This document shows positions 34,923 to 60,954 of a stretch of DNA of 64,000 bases, piece after piece (the first letter of the stretch is position 1; each line of letters begins with the position of its first letter). The notes below the pieces were generated by a model. It was not told the DNA's origin and did not search any database. It saw nothing but the letters and a program-made list of their open reading frames with translations. Origin of the DNA: Acinetobacter amyesii (GTDB taxonomy: Bacteria; Pseudomonadota; Gammaproteobacteria; Pseudomonadales; Moraxellaceae); NCBI RefSeq assembly GCF_002018365.1, contig NZ_MVKX01000001.1, positions 299,178 to 363,177 of the forward strand, given 5' to 3'. Made by a program: the position numbers and the translations under genes.

Positions 34923-36911
34923 TTAAGCGGTAATTTCTTTCACTGCAGCAACAACAGCATCAGCTGTGATACCGAAGTGCTTGTACAAGTCTATTGCTGG
35001 AGCAGATTCACCGTAAGTCGTCATACCGATTACACGGCCGTCAAGACCTACAAATTTCCACCAGTAGTCCACATGCGCAGCTTCAACAGCAACGCGCGCG
35101 CGAATAGCTGCTGGAAGAACCGCTTCACGGTAAGCAGCGTCTTGTTTTACGAATTCTTCAGCACATGGCATAGAAACAACACGTACGCCTTCAAGCTGTG
35201 CGTAAGCATCCATTGCCAATGAAACTTCTGAACCAGTCGCAATGATGATTGCTTTCAATTCGCCTTTTTCTTTTGCAAGTACATAACCGCCTTTCGCTAC
35301 GTCAGCAATTTGATCAGCTGTACGTGTTTGGAACGGCAAGTTTTGACGAGAGAAGATTAACGCTGTAGGGCCTTCTGAACGAAGTAGCGCAGATTTCCAA
35401 GAAATAGACGCTTCTACAGTGTCACATGGACGCCAAGTATTTAGGTTTGGTGTACCACGTAAAGATGCAATTTGCTCTACAGGTTGGTGTGTAGGACCAT
35501 CTTCACCTAGACCAATTGAGTCATGTGTATACACATGAATAACACGCTGTTTCATCAATGCAGACATACGCACTGCATTACGCGCATATTCCATGAACAT
35601 CAGGAATGTTGCTACATAAGGAACGAAACCACCATGCAGCGCTACACCGTTTGCAATAGCAGTCATACCAAATTCGCGTACGCCGTAGTGTACGTAGTTA
35701 CCCGCTGGGTTAGATTCAACGCCTTCTGCGCCTTTCCATAAAGTCAGGTTAGAGCCTGCAAGGTCAGCAGAACCACCTAGAATTTCTGGAAGCTGTGGTG
35801 CAAATGCTTGAATGGCATTTTGGCTCGCTTTACGAGTAGCGATTGTTTCAGCTTTTACATTTACTTCGGCAATATATGCATCTGCTTTTGCAGCAAAGTC
35901 AGCAGGAAGGTCACCAGAAAGACGACGTTTGAGTTCAGCAGCTTCTGTTGGATATTTAGCAGCATAAGCAGCAAATGTGTCGTTCCAAGCAGATTCAGAT
36001 GTAGTACCTTTGGCTTTTGCATCCCAAGCTGCATAAACATCAGCAGGAATTTCAAATGGACCTTCAGTCCAGCCTAATGCTTCACGAGTTAAAGCGATTT
36101 CATCATTACCAAGCGGCGCACCGTGGCAATCTTCTTTACCTTGTTTGTTTGGCGAACCTAAACCAATAATGGTTTTACAGATAATTAAAGTTGGTTTAGC
36201 TGTTTCAGCTTTCGCTTCAACAGTTGCTGCGCGGATTGCGTCTGCATCATGACCATCAACTTTAAGCACTTGCCAACCGTATGCCAAGAAACGCTGTTCT
36301 GTGTCGTCAGAGAACCAACCTTCCACTTCACCGTCAATTGAGATGCCATTGTCATCGTAGTAAACAACTAATTTACCTAGACCCAAAGTACCAGCCAATG
36401 AACATGCTTCGTGAGAAACACCTTCCATTAAACAGCCATCACCTAAGAAACAGTAAGTGTTGTGATCTACAACTGTAATGTCATCTTTGTTGAATTGAGC
36501 CGCTAAAGTTTTTTCAGCAAGTGCAAAACCTACAGCGTTTGCAATACCTTGACCCAATGGACCCGTAGTTGTTTCGATACCCGGTGCATAACCCAATTCT
36601 GGGTGACCTGGAGTTTTAGAATGCAATTGACGGAAAGATTTCAAATCTTCAATAGACAGGTCATAACCTGTTAAGTGCAATAACGCATATTGCAACATAG
36701 AGCCATGGCCGTTTGACAATACGAAACGGTCACGGTTTGCCCATTGTGGGTTTGCAGGGTTGTGGTTGAGGAATTCACGCCACACCACATCAGCAATATC
36801 TGCCATCCCCATTGGAGCACCTGGATGTCCTGAATTTGCTTTTTGCACAGCATCCATTGCCAATACACGAATTGCGTTTGCAATACGACGTTCGTTAAGC
36901 GGGGTTGTCAT
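34923..36911 (-). CDS. tktA: Transketolase
   Basis: Thiamine-diphosphate enzyme of the pentose phosphate pathway that moves two-carbon units between sugar phosphates. Visible are the substrate-binding [12 protein letters not shown] near the N-terminus, the TPP motif [32 protein letters not shown], the pyrimidine-domain segment [30 protein letters not shown], and the C-terminal domain. At 662 residues it matches E. coli TktA (663). Strong terminator downstream; no operon partners. The symbol tkt would serve equally. Confidence 0.97.
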
Positions 36912-55319: not shown

Positions 55320-55997
55320 TTAGTGAATGAGTCCAATTTTCTTGGCTGCGTGAATTGCTTTAGTTCTCGAATTTACGGATAATTTTTGATAAATATTTTT
55401 TACATGCACACCTACAGTAAATTTTGAAATATTAAGTTCCGTGCCAATTTCACTGTTACTCAAACCATTTGCAACACAAGTTAATATCTCTTTTTCCCTT
55501 ACGGATAATTTAATATCAATATTCTCATTTAAATCAAAAGATACATCCGTAGCATAATTTAAATTTTTTAAAATTATTTTCGCTATTGCTGGATCAATAA
55601 TTGCTCCGCCTTTTAACATAGTCCTTATAGCAAACATTAATTCAAAATCATCTTTTTCTTTCAAAACGTAGCCTGTTGCACCTACATGTAAAGCTTGGTA
55701 AATAACATCCAATGTATTCCACGCAGATAAAACCATAATAGGTATAGTTTTTGCTATTTTGTCGCGAATGCTTTGAATAAATTCTATACCGCTGCCATCA
55801 GGCAGGTTTAAATCTACTAAAATAAATTTAACTGGCTTAGTACGGCAAATTTCTTTTGCAAAATCGACAGTCTGTGAAAAAAAAATTTCATTGTTTTTGT
55901 ATCCAAAGCATTCAAGAATTTTGCAAATTCTACTCTGGTGTATTGGGTCATCTTCTAATACTAGTACTGGCTTGAGTAAAGGAAAATCGACGTTCAT
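55320..55997 (-). CDS. LuxR/NarL-type response regulator, orphan, pilus-linked
   Basis: Two-domain response regulator of 225 residues. The receiver domain has the acidic pair in VLVLEDDPIH, the phospho-acceptor aspartate in ILVDLNLPDGSG, the switch Ser in VLSAW and the lysine in YVLKEKDD. The C-terminal LuxR-type HTH is LSVREKEILTCVANGLSNSEIGTELNISKFTVGVHVKNIYQKL. No histidine kinase is in the window, so its sensor is elsewhere. It is divergent from the chaperone-usher cluster, and an 18-bp palindrome recurs before both it and the pilus genes. I infer it regulates them and itself. Confidence 0.9.
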   Translation of the reverse strand: MNVDFPLLKPVLVLEDDPIHQSRICKILECFGYKNNEIFFSQTVDFAKEICRTKPVKFILVDLNLPDGSGIEFIQSIRDKIAKTIPIMVLSAWNTLDVIYQALHVGATGYVLKEKDDFELMFAIRTMLKGGAIIDPAIAKIILKNLNYATDVSFDLNENIDIKLSVREKEILTCVANGLSNSEIGTELNISKFTVGVHVKNIYQKLSVNSRTKAIHAAKKIGLIH

Positions 55998-56053
55998 TTT
56001 GTTATACCTTTCATTTAAGCTCCGAAGTATTTATCTCCAAATTTTTCAGTGCT

Positions 56054-56071
56054 ATCCCTAGAATTGGGTAT
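56054..56071 (-). promoter_or_regulatory. Copy A of the 18-bp palindromic box (before the response regulator)
   Basis: ATCCCTAGAATTGGGTAT matches the full palindrome at 56331-56348 at 14 of 18 positions. It lies 57-74 bases before the response regulator start, suggesting autoregulation. Confidence 0.5.
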
Positions 56072-56330
56072 ATTAAATATATTAAATTGAAGTATTTAAC
56101 CTATTATTATTTTTATGTGATATAGGTTGTATTATAGATAATAAAATATCCATAATATTTTCATAAACGCTTCCTTAATAAACACACAGATTAAATTTCA
56201 AATGACCCATTTCTGATTAAATACCATAAATATAGTTATATCATTGATTCAAAATAACTCATCCAAAGCTATTTATTCAAAATTCTAAAAAACATTATTG
56301 TACGTGATAAGTATAGTAATTTTTTTCAAA

Positions 56331-56348
56331 ATACCTAAATTTAGGTAT
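56331..56348 (+). promoter_or_regulatory. Copy B of the box: perfect 18-bp palindrome before the first pilus subunit
   Basis: ATACCTAAATTTAGGTAT is its own exact complement. Inside it, TACCTAA-AT-TTAGGTA has the 7-2-7 arrangement of NarL/NarP sites, and TACCTAA agrees with the NarL heptamer TACYYMT at 6 of 7 positions. It lies 64 bases before the ATG at 56413. Probable binding site of the divergent LuxR/NarL-type regulator (inference). Confidence 0.65.
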
Positions 56349-56412
56349 AGCTAACACAGCTTTTCAGCCACATAGTTCTACTTGATATGAACTAAGTAAA
56401 AGCTGACTTCAC

Positions 56413-56886
56413 ATGTCCAAATTTAAAAAATTAGCTTTTTTAAGCGCAATTATTAGTTTCACATTTACGCTGAATATTGCATACGCTGCAAACTGTGACA
56501 TTTCAGCAAACACTCAATACGTAAATTTAAACCAATATTCAGGACGTACTGAAGTAAAATTTTTAAACTGTAAAAATGGAATTTATCTACAACATGAATT
56601 TTCAAATTTAAGCCTTAGGGGGCAAAATAGTGATCCCACCTTGGTTTTAGATGGCAACCCTAATATTTATATAGAATTGCCATTTGACGCTAGAGTAGGA
56701 GCAAGTTGGCTAAATCGTGGGGAAAGTTCTTCTGTCGTAAGGGAAACTTATACTTACAGTACTGCTTCAAATACAACTGCAGCAACAATGTATGTAGATA
56801 TGTCTTTAGCACAATTTGGAGACTTATCAAAATATCCAGTTGGGATTTATCGAACGTCTATTACATTTTCAGCAATTGAGCATTAA
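56413..56886 (+). CDS. Pilus subunit-like secreted protein 1 (no donor strand visible)
   Basis: Secreted 157-residue protein: signal LAFLSAIISFTFTLNIAYA cut before ANCDIS. Cysteines at 28 and 53 and the C-terminal GIYRTSITFSAIEH match the layout of spore-coat-U/archaic-pilin subunits. The first cysteine is only two residues into the mature protein, so there is no N-terminal extension to fill the groove of a neighbouring subunit. Such a subunit could only cap the tip (inference). It carries no separate adhesin domain. First gene of the cluster, 268 bases before subunit 2, so probably its own transcript. Confidence 0.72.
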   Translation: MSKFKKLAFLSAIISFTFTLNIAYAANCDISANTQYVNLNQYSGRTEVKFLNCKNGIYLQHEFSNLSLRGQNSDPTLVLDGNPNIYIELPFDARVGASWLNRGESSSVVRETYTYSTASNTTAATMYVDMSLAQFGDLSKYPVGIYRTSITFSAIEH

Positions 56887-57027
56887 AAGTTAAGATCAGT
56901 AATAAAAATTACTCACTAATCACAACATGCTCTTTATATATCCTTAAACAAATAAACTTTTGCACTTCAATGCGGTGAAAGAGTTGTCATTTAAATGAAT
57001 AGGTCAAACTTTTCAGTTGCACTTGAA

Positions 57028-57045
57028 ATACCTAATTTTAGTGAT
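57028..57045 (+). promoter_or_regulatory. Copy C of the box (before the second pilus subunit)
   Basis: ATACCTAATTTTAGTGAT matches the perfect palindrome at 15 of 18 positions, keeping the left half intact. It ends 109 bases before the ATG at 57155. Confidence 0.5.
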
Positions 57046-57154
57046 TCTCAAGCACCCATTCAAATTTAAACTTAATCATATATTTGACATTCAATATACA
57101 TATTTTTTTACTCGCTATAAAAAGTGATTACATTTCATTTGGAGATTTTAAATT

Positions 57155-57643
57155 ATGAATTCATTATTCAAATTGACCAGCGTTTTATTGCTAAGCTCAG
57201 GAGCTATCACTGTTCACGCTGCTAGTCAAAGTGTGACTATAAATTACACGCTTACAATACCTACTGCATGCTCACTTTCCAACCAGGGTACACTTATCAC
57301 CAAAACTTTACCGCATAATGGAACTGCGGTAGATCAAAGCATTGATGTAAAATGTAATGTTCCTTACACCATTCAAGCTTCATCTGTAAACAGAGCGGGT
57401 AATAACAAGTCCAATGTGGTTAATAATTCTAATACCACCCTAAAAATCCCTTACGATATTACGCTAACTGGCGGGCCAATTGCAGTCAATGTAAATGGAG
57501 GGGCTTCTGCCAGCATTACACCATCATCTTCCACTAAAACAGATACATACAACTTATCTGCCAAAACTGCATCACCAATTACGCTTGAAGACTATACTGC
57601 TGGCATTTATACAGATGCTGTCACTGTAGAAATTAGCTACTGA
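57155..57643 (+). CDS. Pilus major-subunit-like protein (spore coat U / archaic pilin fold)
   Basis: Secreted 162-residue subunit. The signal ends VHA before ASQSVTINYTLTIPTAC, a mature N-terminal extension of 16 residues with alternating hydrophobic residues, as in donor strands of chaperone-usher pilins. Cysteines 39 and 67 should pair, and the C-terminal YTAGIYTDAVTVEISY is the pattern that chaperones cap. The sequence is rich in Asn, Thr and Ser with low Lys, as in major pilins. GGAG precedes the start. It is followed by a strong hairpin and then chaperone and usher genes on the same strand. Confidence 0.85.
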   Translation: MNSLFKLTSVLLLSSGAITVHAASQSVTINYTLTIPTACSLSNQGTLITKTLPHNGTAVDQSIDVKCNVPYTIQASSVNRAGNNKSNVVNNSNTTLKIPYDITLTGGPIAVNVNGGASASITPSSSTKTDTYNLSAKTASPITLEDYTAGIYTDAVTVEISY

Positions 57644-57652
57644 TTTCTCATA

Positions 57653-57686
57653 GGCATGTATGTATCCATAGCTCCACATACATGCC
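57653..57686 (+). repeat. Hairpin between pilus subunit and chaperone genes
   Basis: GGCATGTATGT (57653-57663) and ACATACATGCC (57676-57686) form a perfect 11-bp stem with a 12-base loop, without a following T tract. It probably stabilises the upstream subunit mRNA or weakens read-through so that subunit outnumbers chaperone and usher (inference). Confidence 0.65.
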
Positions 57687-57814
57687 ACAGCGTCATTTTG
57701 TAAAACTTCCTATTTAAACCCTCAATTTTACGCTTCAAGATTCACTCTATTTTTAAATGAGCTTTACTGCAGTCTATCTGCAATTGAAATACCACATGGT
57801 TTTGGGGAAAACAT

Positions 57815-58543
57815 ATGTCTCACTTATCATTGATCCGTCAGTGCTTTATAAGCAGCATTGCTGGCCTGATGACGGCAACCGCTTATGCCAATGTCGCAAT
57901 TTATCCAGTCAAAATGCAAATCAATGGGGACAATCGTCAGCGCACAACGACCATCAACCTACAGTCCTCTGTGGATGAAACTCCCCAAAATTACGAAGTA
58001 CATGTATATAAATGGACTCAGGACGAAAACGGCAATGATGTACTAACACCAGATAATCAGCTGATTATTAGCCCTGCTTCATTTGTACTTGAGCCAAATA
58101 GCAAACAAACAATTCGCATGGGCTTTCAACAGTCCATATCAGAAATGAAATTAGAAAAAGAAGAAGCTTGGCGCATTAAAGTTTTACCATTGCCGGATAC
58201 ACAGAAATCCAAGGGTATTAAATATGCATATGGTTTTAATATTCCGCTGTTTGCAGGTAAAAATTTTAAATCTGATTTGTCATTTCAATTCAAAAAAGAT
58301 TCAAAAAACCAACCAATTATTCAAGCCAAAAATTTAGGAACTGGGCATTTCCAGATCACTGGTTTTACCTTGCAAGATGCAAAAGGGAATCACATTTTCA
58401 CATCCAATGAAATGAAATATATTCTTGCGCAACAACAAGTAGAATTAAGTATTCCTACCACCCAACCGCAAAAAGGGCTTCAACTTATTCTACAAACCTC
58501 AAATGATCAGCCGTTGAAATTTGATATTGCAGAGCAAGAATAA
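57815..58543 (+). CDS. Pilus periplasmic chaperone
   Basis: FimC/CsuC-family chaperone that caps unfolded pilus subunits. A signal peptide ends in TAYA. The family layout is clear: NVAIYPVKMQINGDNRQRTTTINLQSS, then YEVHVYKWTQDENGNDVLTPDNQLIISPASFVLEPNSKQTIRMGF (the P-x-x-F-x-L-x-P-x-x-x-Q-x-I-R block). AWRIKVLPLPD and YGFNIPLFAGK follow, near the archaic-type chaperones. GGGG precedes the ATG at 57815. Its stop overlaps the usher start by one base (TAATG). Confidence 0.92.
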   Translation: MSHLSLIRQCFISSIAGLMTATAYANVAIYPVKMQINGDNRQRTTTINLQSSVDETPQNYEVHVYKWTQDENGNDVLTPDNQLIISPASFVLEPNSKQTIRMGFQQSISEMKLEKEEAWRIKVLPLPDTQKSKGIKYAYGFNIPLFAGKNFKSDLSFQFKKDSKNQPIIQAKNLGTGHFQITGFTLQDAKGNHIFTSNEMKYILAQQQVELSIPTTQPQKGLQLILQTSNDQPLKFDIAEQE

Positions 58544-60954
58544 TGAAAAAAGTACGTAATATTGTCAAATTCCCGTCCACCCTCGTTTTAATCTGCTGTA
58601 CGTTTTATTCTCAACATGGTTTAGCTCAGACTGTTGTTGAAAAACTACTTGTGGTAGACACTGCAACTGATTTAAGAAAAGAACTTTCCGCTGTAAATGC
58701 ACCTGCAGCAGAAAACGCCATTTTAGGGCTTTGGATCAATGGTGTTGACCTGCAGCAAGAAGCTTTTATTCTAAACATTAACCAAAAGCGTTATATAGAA
58801 TGTAGCATTCTGCAGCAAGGCTTTGTTGATACAACACAATTAAGCTCGTTAAACCAAGATAATATTCAATATTGTTTAGTTGAAAGCAACGGCTTCAGCA
58901 ATGAAATTGATACACAGAAACAGTTATTTAAACTAAATATTCCCGCGCAATATATGCTTAAGCAGAATCTCTCTACAAAGCAGCGCTTTATACCTGACAT
59001 GCCTAATTTAGGCGGGTTTATTAACTACAATGTGTATTACCAAGATGGTGATTACACCAAGCAATTCAATGCTTCGACAGATCTCAACCTTTTTTGGAAA
59101 AACATGCTGTTCAACAGCAGTCATTTATTTCGCAAAACCTATCATGACCAGCAAGCCGACGATCTGGACAGCAGCCGATTAAATACGTCCTTAAGTTTTG
59201 AATTCCCTGAAAAAATGACAACTTTAAAGCTCGGTGATAATGTCAGCAATTACACTGGGCTGAACCAATCTTTCTATTTTGGTGGTTTGAGCTTTGGCAC
59301 CAATTTTAGCAGGCGGCCTAATTTTACCTATTGGAATACCCCATCCGTTCAAGGCAGCGCCTTAACACAATCGACTGTCGATTTAATGATTAATGGCGCG
59401 CAAGCCTATAATGCCAAAGTCAATCCAGGCCAGTTCAATATAGACAGCAATATTGGCTTTTCAGGTTTGGGAGATGCACAAGTGATTGTCAAAGATATTT
59501 TAGGCAATACCACAGTGCAAAATATCTCAGTTTTTGTCGACCAGCGGCTGCTGCGTCCCCGACTGACAGATTATAATTTTTCCGCTGGTAAACTGCGCTA
59601 TAACTATGCTTATGACGACAATGATTATCGTGAATGGTTTGGCAGTGGCTATATCCGTAGAGGTATAACACCCTCAACTACTTTAGGCGCAACAGCAGAC
59701 TATAGTAAAAAGCTGGAAAGTGCTGGACTGATGTGGAGCCAATACCTGCATAAATTAGGTTTATTAGAAGTCAATTCAGCCTATAGCCATGCAGATGATT
59801 TGGGTTTAGAAGGCTATACAGTGAATACCGAATTTAAGCGTAATACCCAAAACTATAGTGTCGGCTTACGCTCACAATATTACAGTTCTGACTTTCGTAT
59901 GTTAGGTTTAGATGATTACAAAATCAATTATCTGCCTCAGCAAGAAAATCAAATTTATGTATCTAAAAATCAAATTCCTTTCATTAATAATCTATCGTTA
60001 AGCTATGTTGAAAGAAAATATAGAGAAGACACGGCACAACAAGATCAGCGGATTTTTAATTTAAGAACCAGCCAATCTTTTGCAAAAAGGTTATTTGGCA
60101 GCTTTGGTGTGTCTTATGATGCAGAGAACAATGACCGCGCTAGTGTTGATGTGATGCTCAGCTATAACTTTGATGACAGTAAACATTCTGCCACGCTCTC
60201 ACAGCATGATGATGACGAAACCAGCCTCCAATTTAATAAATACAGTTTCGAAAATACTGGTTTTGACTATACGATTGGTGCAAGCCGCTCACATGATGTT
60301 TATTCAGGCAATCTATCCACAACATTAAAGACTAACTCTGGGGACTTAAATCTGCAGTATTTGCAAACAGATGATCAAAAATATTACAGCGCTAATTATA
60401 TGGGATCACTTGTTTGGCTGGGCAATCGCTTAGATTTGAGTAAATACATCTCGAATAGCTTTGCACTTATTCGAGTTGATGGTACGCCAAATGTTGATAT
60501 TTACAGTAATGGTTCCTATATTGGCAAAACCAACAAAAACGGCGAAATTTTCAGCTATAACTTATATGGCTATAGCGAAAACAATGTGCTTTTTGATGAG
60601 AGCCAAATCAGCATTGAAGATAGTTTTGCCCACTCTTCTCGCTCTATTATGCCCATTAATCAACGTGGATATATCATTGATTTTCCAATGAGTAATGCCG
60701 AAAGTTTCAACCTTACTTTCAAATTTATTGATCAAAATCAGCAGCCACTTGAAAGCGGAAGTATTGTTAATTTTAAAGATATTGAACAGGGTAAATATCC
60801 AATTAACAGCAATCACCTTGTCACAATATACGGTTTAACGCCAAGACCTTATAACATTGAGGTTCAAACCAACAAAGGTATGTGTAGCAGCAACTTTAAT
60901 TTAAATGCTGATACTCAAGTCGATGAGCCGCCCATCACCCTTATTTGCCAATAA
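58543..60954 (+). CDS. Outer-membrane pilus usher
   Basis: PapC/CsuD-type usher that secretes and polymerises pilus subunits. After the signal (LVLICCTFYSQHGLAQT) come the N-terminal domain (LGLWINGVDLQQEAFILNINQKRYIECSILQQ), the barrel beginning around NLGGFINYNVYYQDGD, the plug region (LMINGAQAYNAKVNPGQFNIDSNIGFSGLGDAQVIVKDILGNT), VDQRLLRPRLTDYNFSAG and the C-terminal domains with IEDSFAHSSRSIMPINQRGYIIDFP. 803 residues is the short end of the family and fits the archaic/sigma-clade ushers. No adhesin gene follows; the next gene is convergent. Confidence 0.93.
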   Translation: MKKVRNIVKFPSTLVLICCTFYSQHGLAQTVVEKLLVVDTATDLRKELSAVNAPAAENAILGLWINGVDLQQEAFILNINQKRYIECSILQQGFVDTTQLSSLNQDNIQYCLVESNGFSNEIDTQKQLFKLNIPAQYMLKQNLSTKQRFIPDMPNLGGFINYNVYYQDGDYTKQFNASTDLNLFWKNMLFNSSHLFRKTYHDQQADDLDSSRLNTSLSFEFPEKMTTLKLGDNVSNYTGLNQSFYFGGLSFGTNFSRRPNFTYWNTPSVQGSALTQSTVDLMINGAQAYNAKVNPGQFNIDSNIGFSGLGDAQVIVKDILGNTTVQNISVFVDQRLLRPRLTDYNFSAGKLRYNYAYDDNDYREWFGSGYIRRGITPSTTLGATADYSKKLESAGLMWSQYLHKLGLLEVNSAYSHADDLGLEGYTVNTEFKRNTQNYSVGLRSQYYSSDFRMLGLDDYKINYLPQQENQIYVSKNQIPFINNLSLSYVERKYREDTAQQDQRIFNLRTSQSFAKRLFGSFGVSYDAENNDRASVDVMLSYNFDDSKHSATLSQHDDDETSLQFNKYSFENTGFDYTIGASRSHDVYSGNLSTTLKTNSGDLNLQYLQTDDQKYYSANYMGSLVWLGNRLDLSKYISNSFALIRVDGTPNVDIYSNGSYIGKTNKNGEIFSYNLYGYSENNVLFDESQISIEDSFAHSSRSIMPINQRGYIIDFPMSNAESFNLTFKFIDQNQQPLESGSIVNFKDIEQGKYPINSNHLVTIYGLTPRPYNIEVQTNKGMCSSNFNLNADTQVDEPPITLICQ

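What the first reader, a model, noticed from the sequence alone, without database searches (positions are those of the whole stretch)
55320..60954. An 18-bp palindrome, present three times, links an orphan response regulator to a chaperone-usher pilus cluster
Seen in sequence: a perfect 18-bp palindrome ATACCTAAATTTAGGTAT (56331-56348) before pilus subunit 1, a 15/18 copy (57028-57045) before subunit 2, and a 14/18 copy (56054-56071) before the divergent response regulator. The inner TACCTAA-AT-TTAGGTA has the 7-2-7 inverted-heptamer geometry known for NarL/NarP, and the regulator is a LuxR/NarL-class protein. Inference: it binds all three sites, switching on the subunit genes and controlling itself. 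No kinase is encoded here. I do not recall a described Acinetobacter pilus with this arrangement.
Basis: partly seen in the sequence, partly recalled or inferred. Interest (0 to 1): 0.75.

Follow-up and report, generated by a model that had tools for sequence, protein, structure and literature searches.

The report
Shared operator of Acinetobacter pilus regulators
A short mirror-like DNA sequence in front of two pilus genes and their regulator is conserved in related bacteria and is probably the docking site of a family of regulators that control surface pili in the genus Acinetobacter.

Summary
In detail: the 64-kb window holds exactly three sites within 4 mismatches of ATACCTAAATTTAGGTAT, one in each promoter named. 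In the 7 loci where regulator RR1 adjoins this pilus, the subunit-1 box is exact in 5, although subunit 1 is only 19-41% identical. A box precedes RR1-type genes in 12 of 14 loci, 11 of 17 examined genes of a second regulator type, all 19 found genes of a degenerate third type, and other chaperone-usher pilins. In 175 genus genomes all 5 exact copies are at this pilus. RR1 is an orphan only locally: the genome encodes three related sensor kinases. The orthologue of one of them, about 64 kb away here, lies in the same pilus cluster in genome G135. Most likely phosphorylated RR1 binds the boxes, activates the pilin genes and controls itself, within a branched pilus network resembling the P. aeruginosa Roc system. 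Binding, direction of control and kinase pairing are inferred. My paper searches showed no description of it.

The parts
55320..55997 (-). RR1, NarL/LuxR-type response regulator, 225 aa
   Evidence: Receiver PF00072 and GerE PF00196 above cut-off; best solved match NarL 1a04
56054..56071 (.). Box A, 57 bp before the RR1 start (14/18)
   Evidence: A box precedes 12 of 14 RR1-type genes, score 13.6 or more
56331..56348 (.). Box B, perfect palindrome, starts 82 bp before the subunit-1 ATG
   Evidence: Exact in 5 of 7 RR1-pilus loci, 2 and 3 mismatches in the other two
56413..56886 (+). Pilus subunit 1, 157 aa
   Evidence: No Pfam hit; weak pilin-fold matches of a low-confidence model
57028..57045 (.). 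Box C (15/18), starts 127 bp before the subunit-2 ATG
   Evidence: 3 or fewer mismatches in 4 of 7 loci, degenerate in 3
57155..57643 (+). Pilus subunit 2, SCPU-domain pilin, 162 aa
   Evidence: PF05229, 25.7 bits, cut-off 22.4
57815..58543 (+). Periplasmic chaperone, 242 aa
   Evidence: PapD_N PF00345 above cut-off
58543..60954 (+). Outer-membrane usher, 803 aa
   Evidence: PF00577 above cut-off

Best explanation
The 18-bp palindrome is the operator of a genus-level family of NarL-type response regulators that control chaperone-usher pili. At this locus RR1, once phosphorylated, most likely binds boxes B and C as a dimer and activates the two pilin promoters, and binds box A to control its own gene. 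Its kinase is most likely HK3, encoded about 64 kb away (G000:C1:418839-420779), with the related kinases HK1 and HK2 as possible further inputs. Shown: the boxes, their conservation, their placement before pilin and regulator genes, and the co-occurrence of the RR1 and HK3 clades. Inferred: binding, activation, autoregulation, phosphotransfer.
For: Exact box before subunit 1 in 5 of 7 loci while subunit 1 is 19-41% identical to five orthologues. All 5 exact copies in 175 genomes are at this pilus; of five 1-mismatch copies two are at it and one at a related pilus. Boxes before RR1-type genes in 12 of 14 loci, six of these not used for training; before 11 of 17 RR2-type genes, with column-shuffled matrices averaging 0.12, maximum 8, in 300; before 19 of 19 RR3-type genes. 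Boxes at set distances before Csu-like pilins. Usher loci with a box: 25 of 51 in genomes with the kinase family, 0 of 11 without. HK3-clade kinases lie in or beside the pilus cluster in G135 and G001 and occur in 9 of 9 genomes with the close RR1 clade against 4 of 140 others.
Against: No binding data. G001 has boxes, pilus and kinase but no close RR1- or RR2-type gene (best match 1.4e-20). Own RR2 has only a weak site (10.2). Two of 14 RR1-type genes lack a box nearby. 26 of 51 usher loci in kinase-bearing genomes have no box, and seven of the 25 with one are doubtful; at a threshold of 16 the contrast is not significant (10 of 51 against 0 of 11, p 0.12). HK3 lies elsewhere in the own genome, and its place in G135, between IS genes and after a hydrolase remnant, could be an accident of rearrangement. 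Co-occurrence figures ignore shared ancestry.
Confidence: 0.72

Rival explanations
1. The boxes are the operator of this regulator family, but RR2 with its adjacent kinase HK1 (own C1:249-252 kb) is the main controller of this pilus, and RR1 is a minor or modulating partner.
For: RR2-type genes in related genomes carry the same box; RR2 and HK1 are an intact pair in the own genome; RR2-type genes adjoin FimA-type pilus genes in two loci read.
Against: The exact box tracks the RR1-pilus loci: 5 of 5 exact copies. RR1, not RR2, is adjacent to and divergent from this pilus in 7 loci. Own RR2 has only a weak box (10.2).
Confidence: 0.15
2. The boxes bind an unrelated regulator, and RR1 only sits near them.
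For: G001 carries boxes at a pilus without a close RR1- or RR2-type gene.
Against: The boxes precede genes of three regulator types of this one family: 12 of 14, 11 of 17 and 19 of 19, and were absent from the 11 usher loci of genomes without the kinase family.
Confidence: 0.08
3. The palindromes are chance or structural features of AT-rich promoters with no regulatory role.
For: Near-palindromes of 18 bp are not rare (22 in the window); strict-pattern counts in the own genome equal the control, 7 against 7; genus-wide at 1 mismatch the listed control rows sum to 7 places against 10.
Against: Eight of those 10 places are at chaperone-usher pili; exact conservation amid diverged flanks; column-shuffled matrices do not reproduce the hits.
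Confidence: 0.05

Closest known systems
Roc network of Pseudomonas aeruginosa (RocS kinases with RocA1, RocA2, RocA3, RocR; cupB and cupC fimbriae); passages of PMC12051241
   Same: Several paralogous kinases and NarL-like regulators, encoded at separate loci, control chaperone-usher fimbriae; autoregulation is reported for PA4080 (RocA3).
   Different: RocS kinases are unorthodox (phosphorelay) kinases; the three own kinases here show HATPase_c, two with a 7TMR-DISM_7TM domain, and no receiver domain. Here one operator is shared; cross-talk is untested.
BfmSR-csuFABCDE of Burkholderia thailandensis; passages of PMC12124856
   Same: NarL/FixJ-type regulator next to an archaic chaperone-usher pilus, activating the pilus promoter and its own expression.
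   Different: BfmS is an unorthodox kinase in one locus with regulator and pilus; no operator was found in the passages seen; here the kinase is split off.
BfmRS-csu of Acinetobacter baumannii; passages of PMC6363711
   Same: A two-component system of the same genus governs a Csu-type chaperone-usher pilus.
   Different: BfmR is an OmpR-type regulator (recalled); RR1 is LuxR/NarL-type.
NarL/NarP of Escherichia coli
   Same: NarL is the best solved-structure match; half-site TACCTAA fits TACYYMT at 6 of 7.
   Different: Far below the curated NarL cut-off, 96 against 250 bits; the genes next to the sites are pilus genes.

Membership tests
NarL/FixJ (LuxR-HTH) response regulators | Receiver domain plus GerE/LuxR-type HTH | tested here: met
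   PF00072 63 bits and PF00196 70.8 bits, both above cut-off
NarL/FixJ (LuxR-HTH) response regulators | Conserved phospho-acceptor Asp and acidic pocket in RR1 | tested here: met
   EDD, VDL, LSAW and LKEKD motifs read by eye in the alignment
NarL/NarP nitrate regulators | Score above the curated NarL or NarP equivalog cut-off | tested here: not met
   96 against 250 bits and 79 against 343 bits
Chaperone-usher pilus | Chaperone, usher and at least one pilin | tested here: met
   PF00345, PF00577 and PF05229 above cut-off
Roc-type pilus network | Paralogous kinases and regulators at separate loci, in a genome with several chaperone-usher pili | tested here: met
   Three kinases, RR1, RR2 and degenerate RR3, three ushers
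Roc-type pilus network | Unorthodox (phosphorelay) RocS-type kinases | tested here: not met
   Own kinases show HATPase_c, two also 7TMR-DISM_7TM; no receiver or Hpt domain was reported
Roc-type pilus network | Kinase-regulator cross-talk | not testable with these tools
   Needs phosphotransfer or two-hybrid assays

The most novel reading that the evidence does not exclude
Acinetobacter carries an undescribed, branched pilus-selection network: up to three related sensor kinases and three NarL-type regulators, one of them degenerate and without its phospho-acceptor, share one palindromic operator and together decide which of several chaperone-usher pili is built, with regulator, kinase and pilus genes shuffled between loci but held together by the operator.
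Probability: 0.38. Interest if true: 0.7.

Novelty: new variant of a known kind. Interest (0 to 1): 0.57.

Why it matters
In the passages I saw, control of chaperone-usher pili in Acinetobacter is described through BfmRS and csu in A. baumannii. An operator shared by many pili and regulators across the genus would show which pili are co-regulated. It names a testable kinase for a seemingly orphan regulator, and is a natural case of two-component genes splitting apart while keeping one DNA code.

Tried and rejected
The strict-palindrome count in the own genome equals its control (7 against 7) and was dropped as a measure; a matrix and a symmetric pattern took its place. NarL membership was rejected on the curated cut-off. 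A perfect 18-bp palindrome at 35521 lies inside a transketolase-like frame (named by eye) and is unrelated. Two of ten sites at 1 or fewer mismatches in the genus are not at pili: G131 inside a coding frame, G123 before a 145-aa frame. The own FimA-type pilus (PF16970; C1:164-180 kb) has no site at 12 or more. Seven own-genome places of the degenerate pattern were read and not taken as targets; C1:373307 (18.2, before a thiE-like gene, named by eye) is undecided. The sigma-70 scan found no promoter on the + strand of the span, three on the - strand (shuffles: mean 6.8).

Rows left out. Of 74 usher matches with E up to 1.8e-129, six RR1-pilus loci (training) and six not fetched (G173, G140, G025, G112, G092, G119) are not among the 62; one training locus, L162, is. 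In one search, seven of the 25 loci with a site are doubtful: four close to the chaperone start, three inside a frame. The 17 RR2-type genes are the 16 loci returned (L019-L034) plus the own one, not every such gene. A truncated G097 kinase and a duplicate G135 row were left out of the kinase tree; one search counts G097 as having the kinase, by identity. RR1 was sought in 149 genomes; kinase, usher and RR3 in 175.

Outside the genus: 1 other genome of 341 drawn from the order had a kinase match at 1e-40, directly after a regulator frame; I saw no pilus genes in 19 kb by eye.

Papers. Searches for an earlier description; NarL consensus. I read passages only and listings otherwise.
Full report
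Observation. They are the only sites with four or fewer mismatches in 64 kb, each in the promoter named; none of 5,000 Markov sequences of the promoter span had three. A matrix built only from sites of other genomes scores them 20.7-26.6, against 11.5 for the next best site in the window.

The locus. 55320-55997 (-) encodes RR1, with receiver and LuxR-type HTH domains; its best solved match is NarL. Divergent from it lie two subunit genes, a PapD-like chaperone and an usher. Subunit 1 has no Pfam match; its model (pLDDT 67) finds FimA, CfaB and Csu pilins with TM-scores of about 0.3-0.5, so 'pilin' is likely, not proven. The flanks are a TetR-type gene and an alpha/beta hydrolase gene.

Conservation. 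Of 149 genus genomes, 14 (own included) have an RR1-type gene at 57% identity or more, a clade (100/99) apart from the widespread RR2 type. The pilus adjoins RR1 in 7 of the 14. Before subunit 1 the palindrome is exact in 5 of these 7, with 2 and 3 mismatches in the others. Before subunit 2 a box with 3 or fewer mismatches is kept in 4 of 7; the other 3 have 5 mismatches. Subunit 1 is only 19-41% identical to the five orthologues aligned. A box scoring 13.6 or more precedes RR1 in 12 of 14 loci; L041 and L043 lack it, and six of the 12 were not used for training. In 175 genomes all 5 exact copies are at this pilus. Of five 1-mismatch copies two are at the same pilus, one is beside a kinase gene at a related pilus (G001) and two are elsewhere; the listed control rows sum to 7 places.

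A family operator. The matrix finds sites of score 12 or more before 11 of 17 RR2-type genes examined, ten of them 74-85 bp upstream of the aligned start. The own RR2 has only a weak one (10.2). Of 300 column-shuffled palindromic matrices the mean was 0.12 and the maximum 8. One own-genome site led to a third regulator-like gene, RR3 (C9:107158-107766), about 30% identical to RR1 and RR2. It lacks the phospho-Asp by alignment, and only a receiver match below cut-off was found in it. RR3-type genes were found in 19 of 175 genomes. All 19 have a site of 14.5 or more within 350 bp upstream; by my reading of the alignment the phospho-Asp is missing in 11 and kept in 8.

Other pili. A scan of 77 loci (929,731 bases) gave 52 sites of 12 or more, where about 8 are expected from a simulated background of 9 per Mb. 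Three of the 52 are in L162, which holds training sites, and six lie inside reading frames. Csu-like pili carry sites about 243-284 and 482-495 bp before the major pilin, among them the own second pilus on C8; two loci with FimA-like pilins (named by eye) carry them too. In 62 usher loci a site of 12 or more lies upstream in 25 of 51 from genomes with the kinase family and in 0 of 11 without (p 0.0017); at 14 the counts are 18 and 0 (p 0.015), at 16 they are 10 and 0 (p 0.12). Seven of the 25 are doubtful and ancestry is not corrected for. Many pili, not all, would belong to the regulon.

The kinase. The own genome encodes three kinases of one family. HK1 and HK2 pass the Pfam cut-offs for 7TMR-DISM_7TM and HATPase_c. 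HK3 shows HATPase_c only but aligns with both over about 600 residues at 37-39%. HK1 follows RR2, HK2 follows the C8 pilus, and HK3 stands about 64 kb from RR1. In G135 the HK3 orthologue (59%) lies in the RR1-pilus locus, behind the usher and a hydrolase remnant, with transposase genes around it. In G001 an HK3-clade kinase lies beside a related pilus with a 1-mismatch box before it. Both fall in a 14-row HK3 clade (100/100), though G001 has a long branch. All 9 genomes with the close RR1 clade have such a kinase, against 4 of the other 140; for the wider 14-row clade it is 9 of 14 against 4 of 135 (ancestry not corrected). HK3 is the best candidate partner; the pairing is inferred. Against it: G001 has no close RR1- or RR2-type gene, and G135's arrangement may be a chance rearrangement.

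How it most likely works. A membrane kinase senses an unknown signal and phosphorylates RR1. The RR1 dimer binds box B, starting 82 bp before the subunit-1 ATG, and box C, and recruits polymerase; no sigma-70-like promoter was found on that strand. Box A lets RR1 control its own gene. Activation rather than repression is inferred from box position and comparable systems. RR3 may be a phosphorylation-independent modulator or a decaying gene; nothing here decides.

Comparison. It works like the Roc network (passages of PMC12051241) and BfmSR-csu of B. thailandensis (passages of PMC12124856), but kinase type and layout differ, so I file it with neither. It is not NarL. A. baumannii BfmRS-csu (passages of PMC6363711) uses a regulator of another type (recalled). 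Searches of the held papers showed no description; most subscription papers are not held. The window's own species was not identified.

Verdict. Observation confirmed; interpretation supported in outline, extended, unproven at the bench. New variant of a known kind, interest 0.57.

Noticed in passing
G000:C9:107158-107766 (L227:1590-2201): A 203-aa degenerate relative of RR1 and RR2 (RR3) without the phospho-Asp, with a box 89 bp upstream; related genes in 19 of 175 genomes.
   Followed up: partly
G000:C8:62000-80000 (L094): A second Csu-like pilus with two boxes 257 and 284 bp before its first pilin and a kinase gene (HK2) behind it.
   Followed up: partly
L038:8691-8708 (G113, A. cumulans): Next to RR1, where the pilus is missing, a box (18.5) lies 71 bp before a gene for a 307-aa protein with a signal-peptide-like start: a possible other target.
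   Followed up: no
G000:C1:373307-373324 (L003): A high-scoring site (18.2) upstream of a thiE-like gene; target or chance not decided.
   Followed up: no
L162:15656-17845 (G135): Repeated peptide units in several frames beside the RR1-pilus-kinase cluster suggest a repeat array, perhaps CRISPR-like; not checked.
   Followed up: no
G063, G005, G073, G093 (second-type regulator loci): Two kinases of this family lie in tandem next to a regulator gene in G063, G005 and G073, and two in tandem in G093.
   Followed up: no
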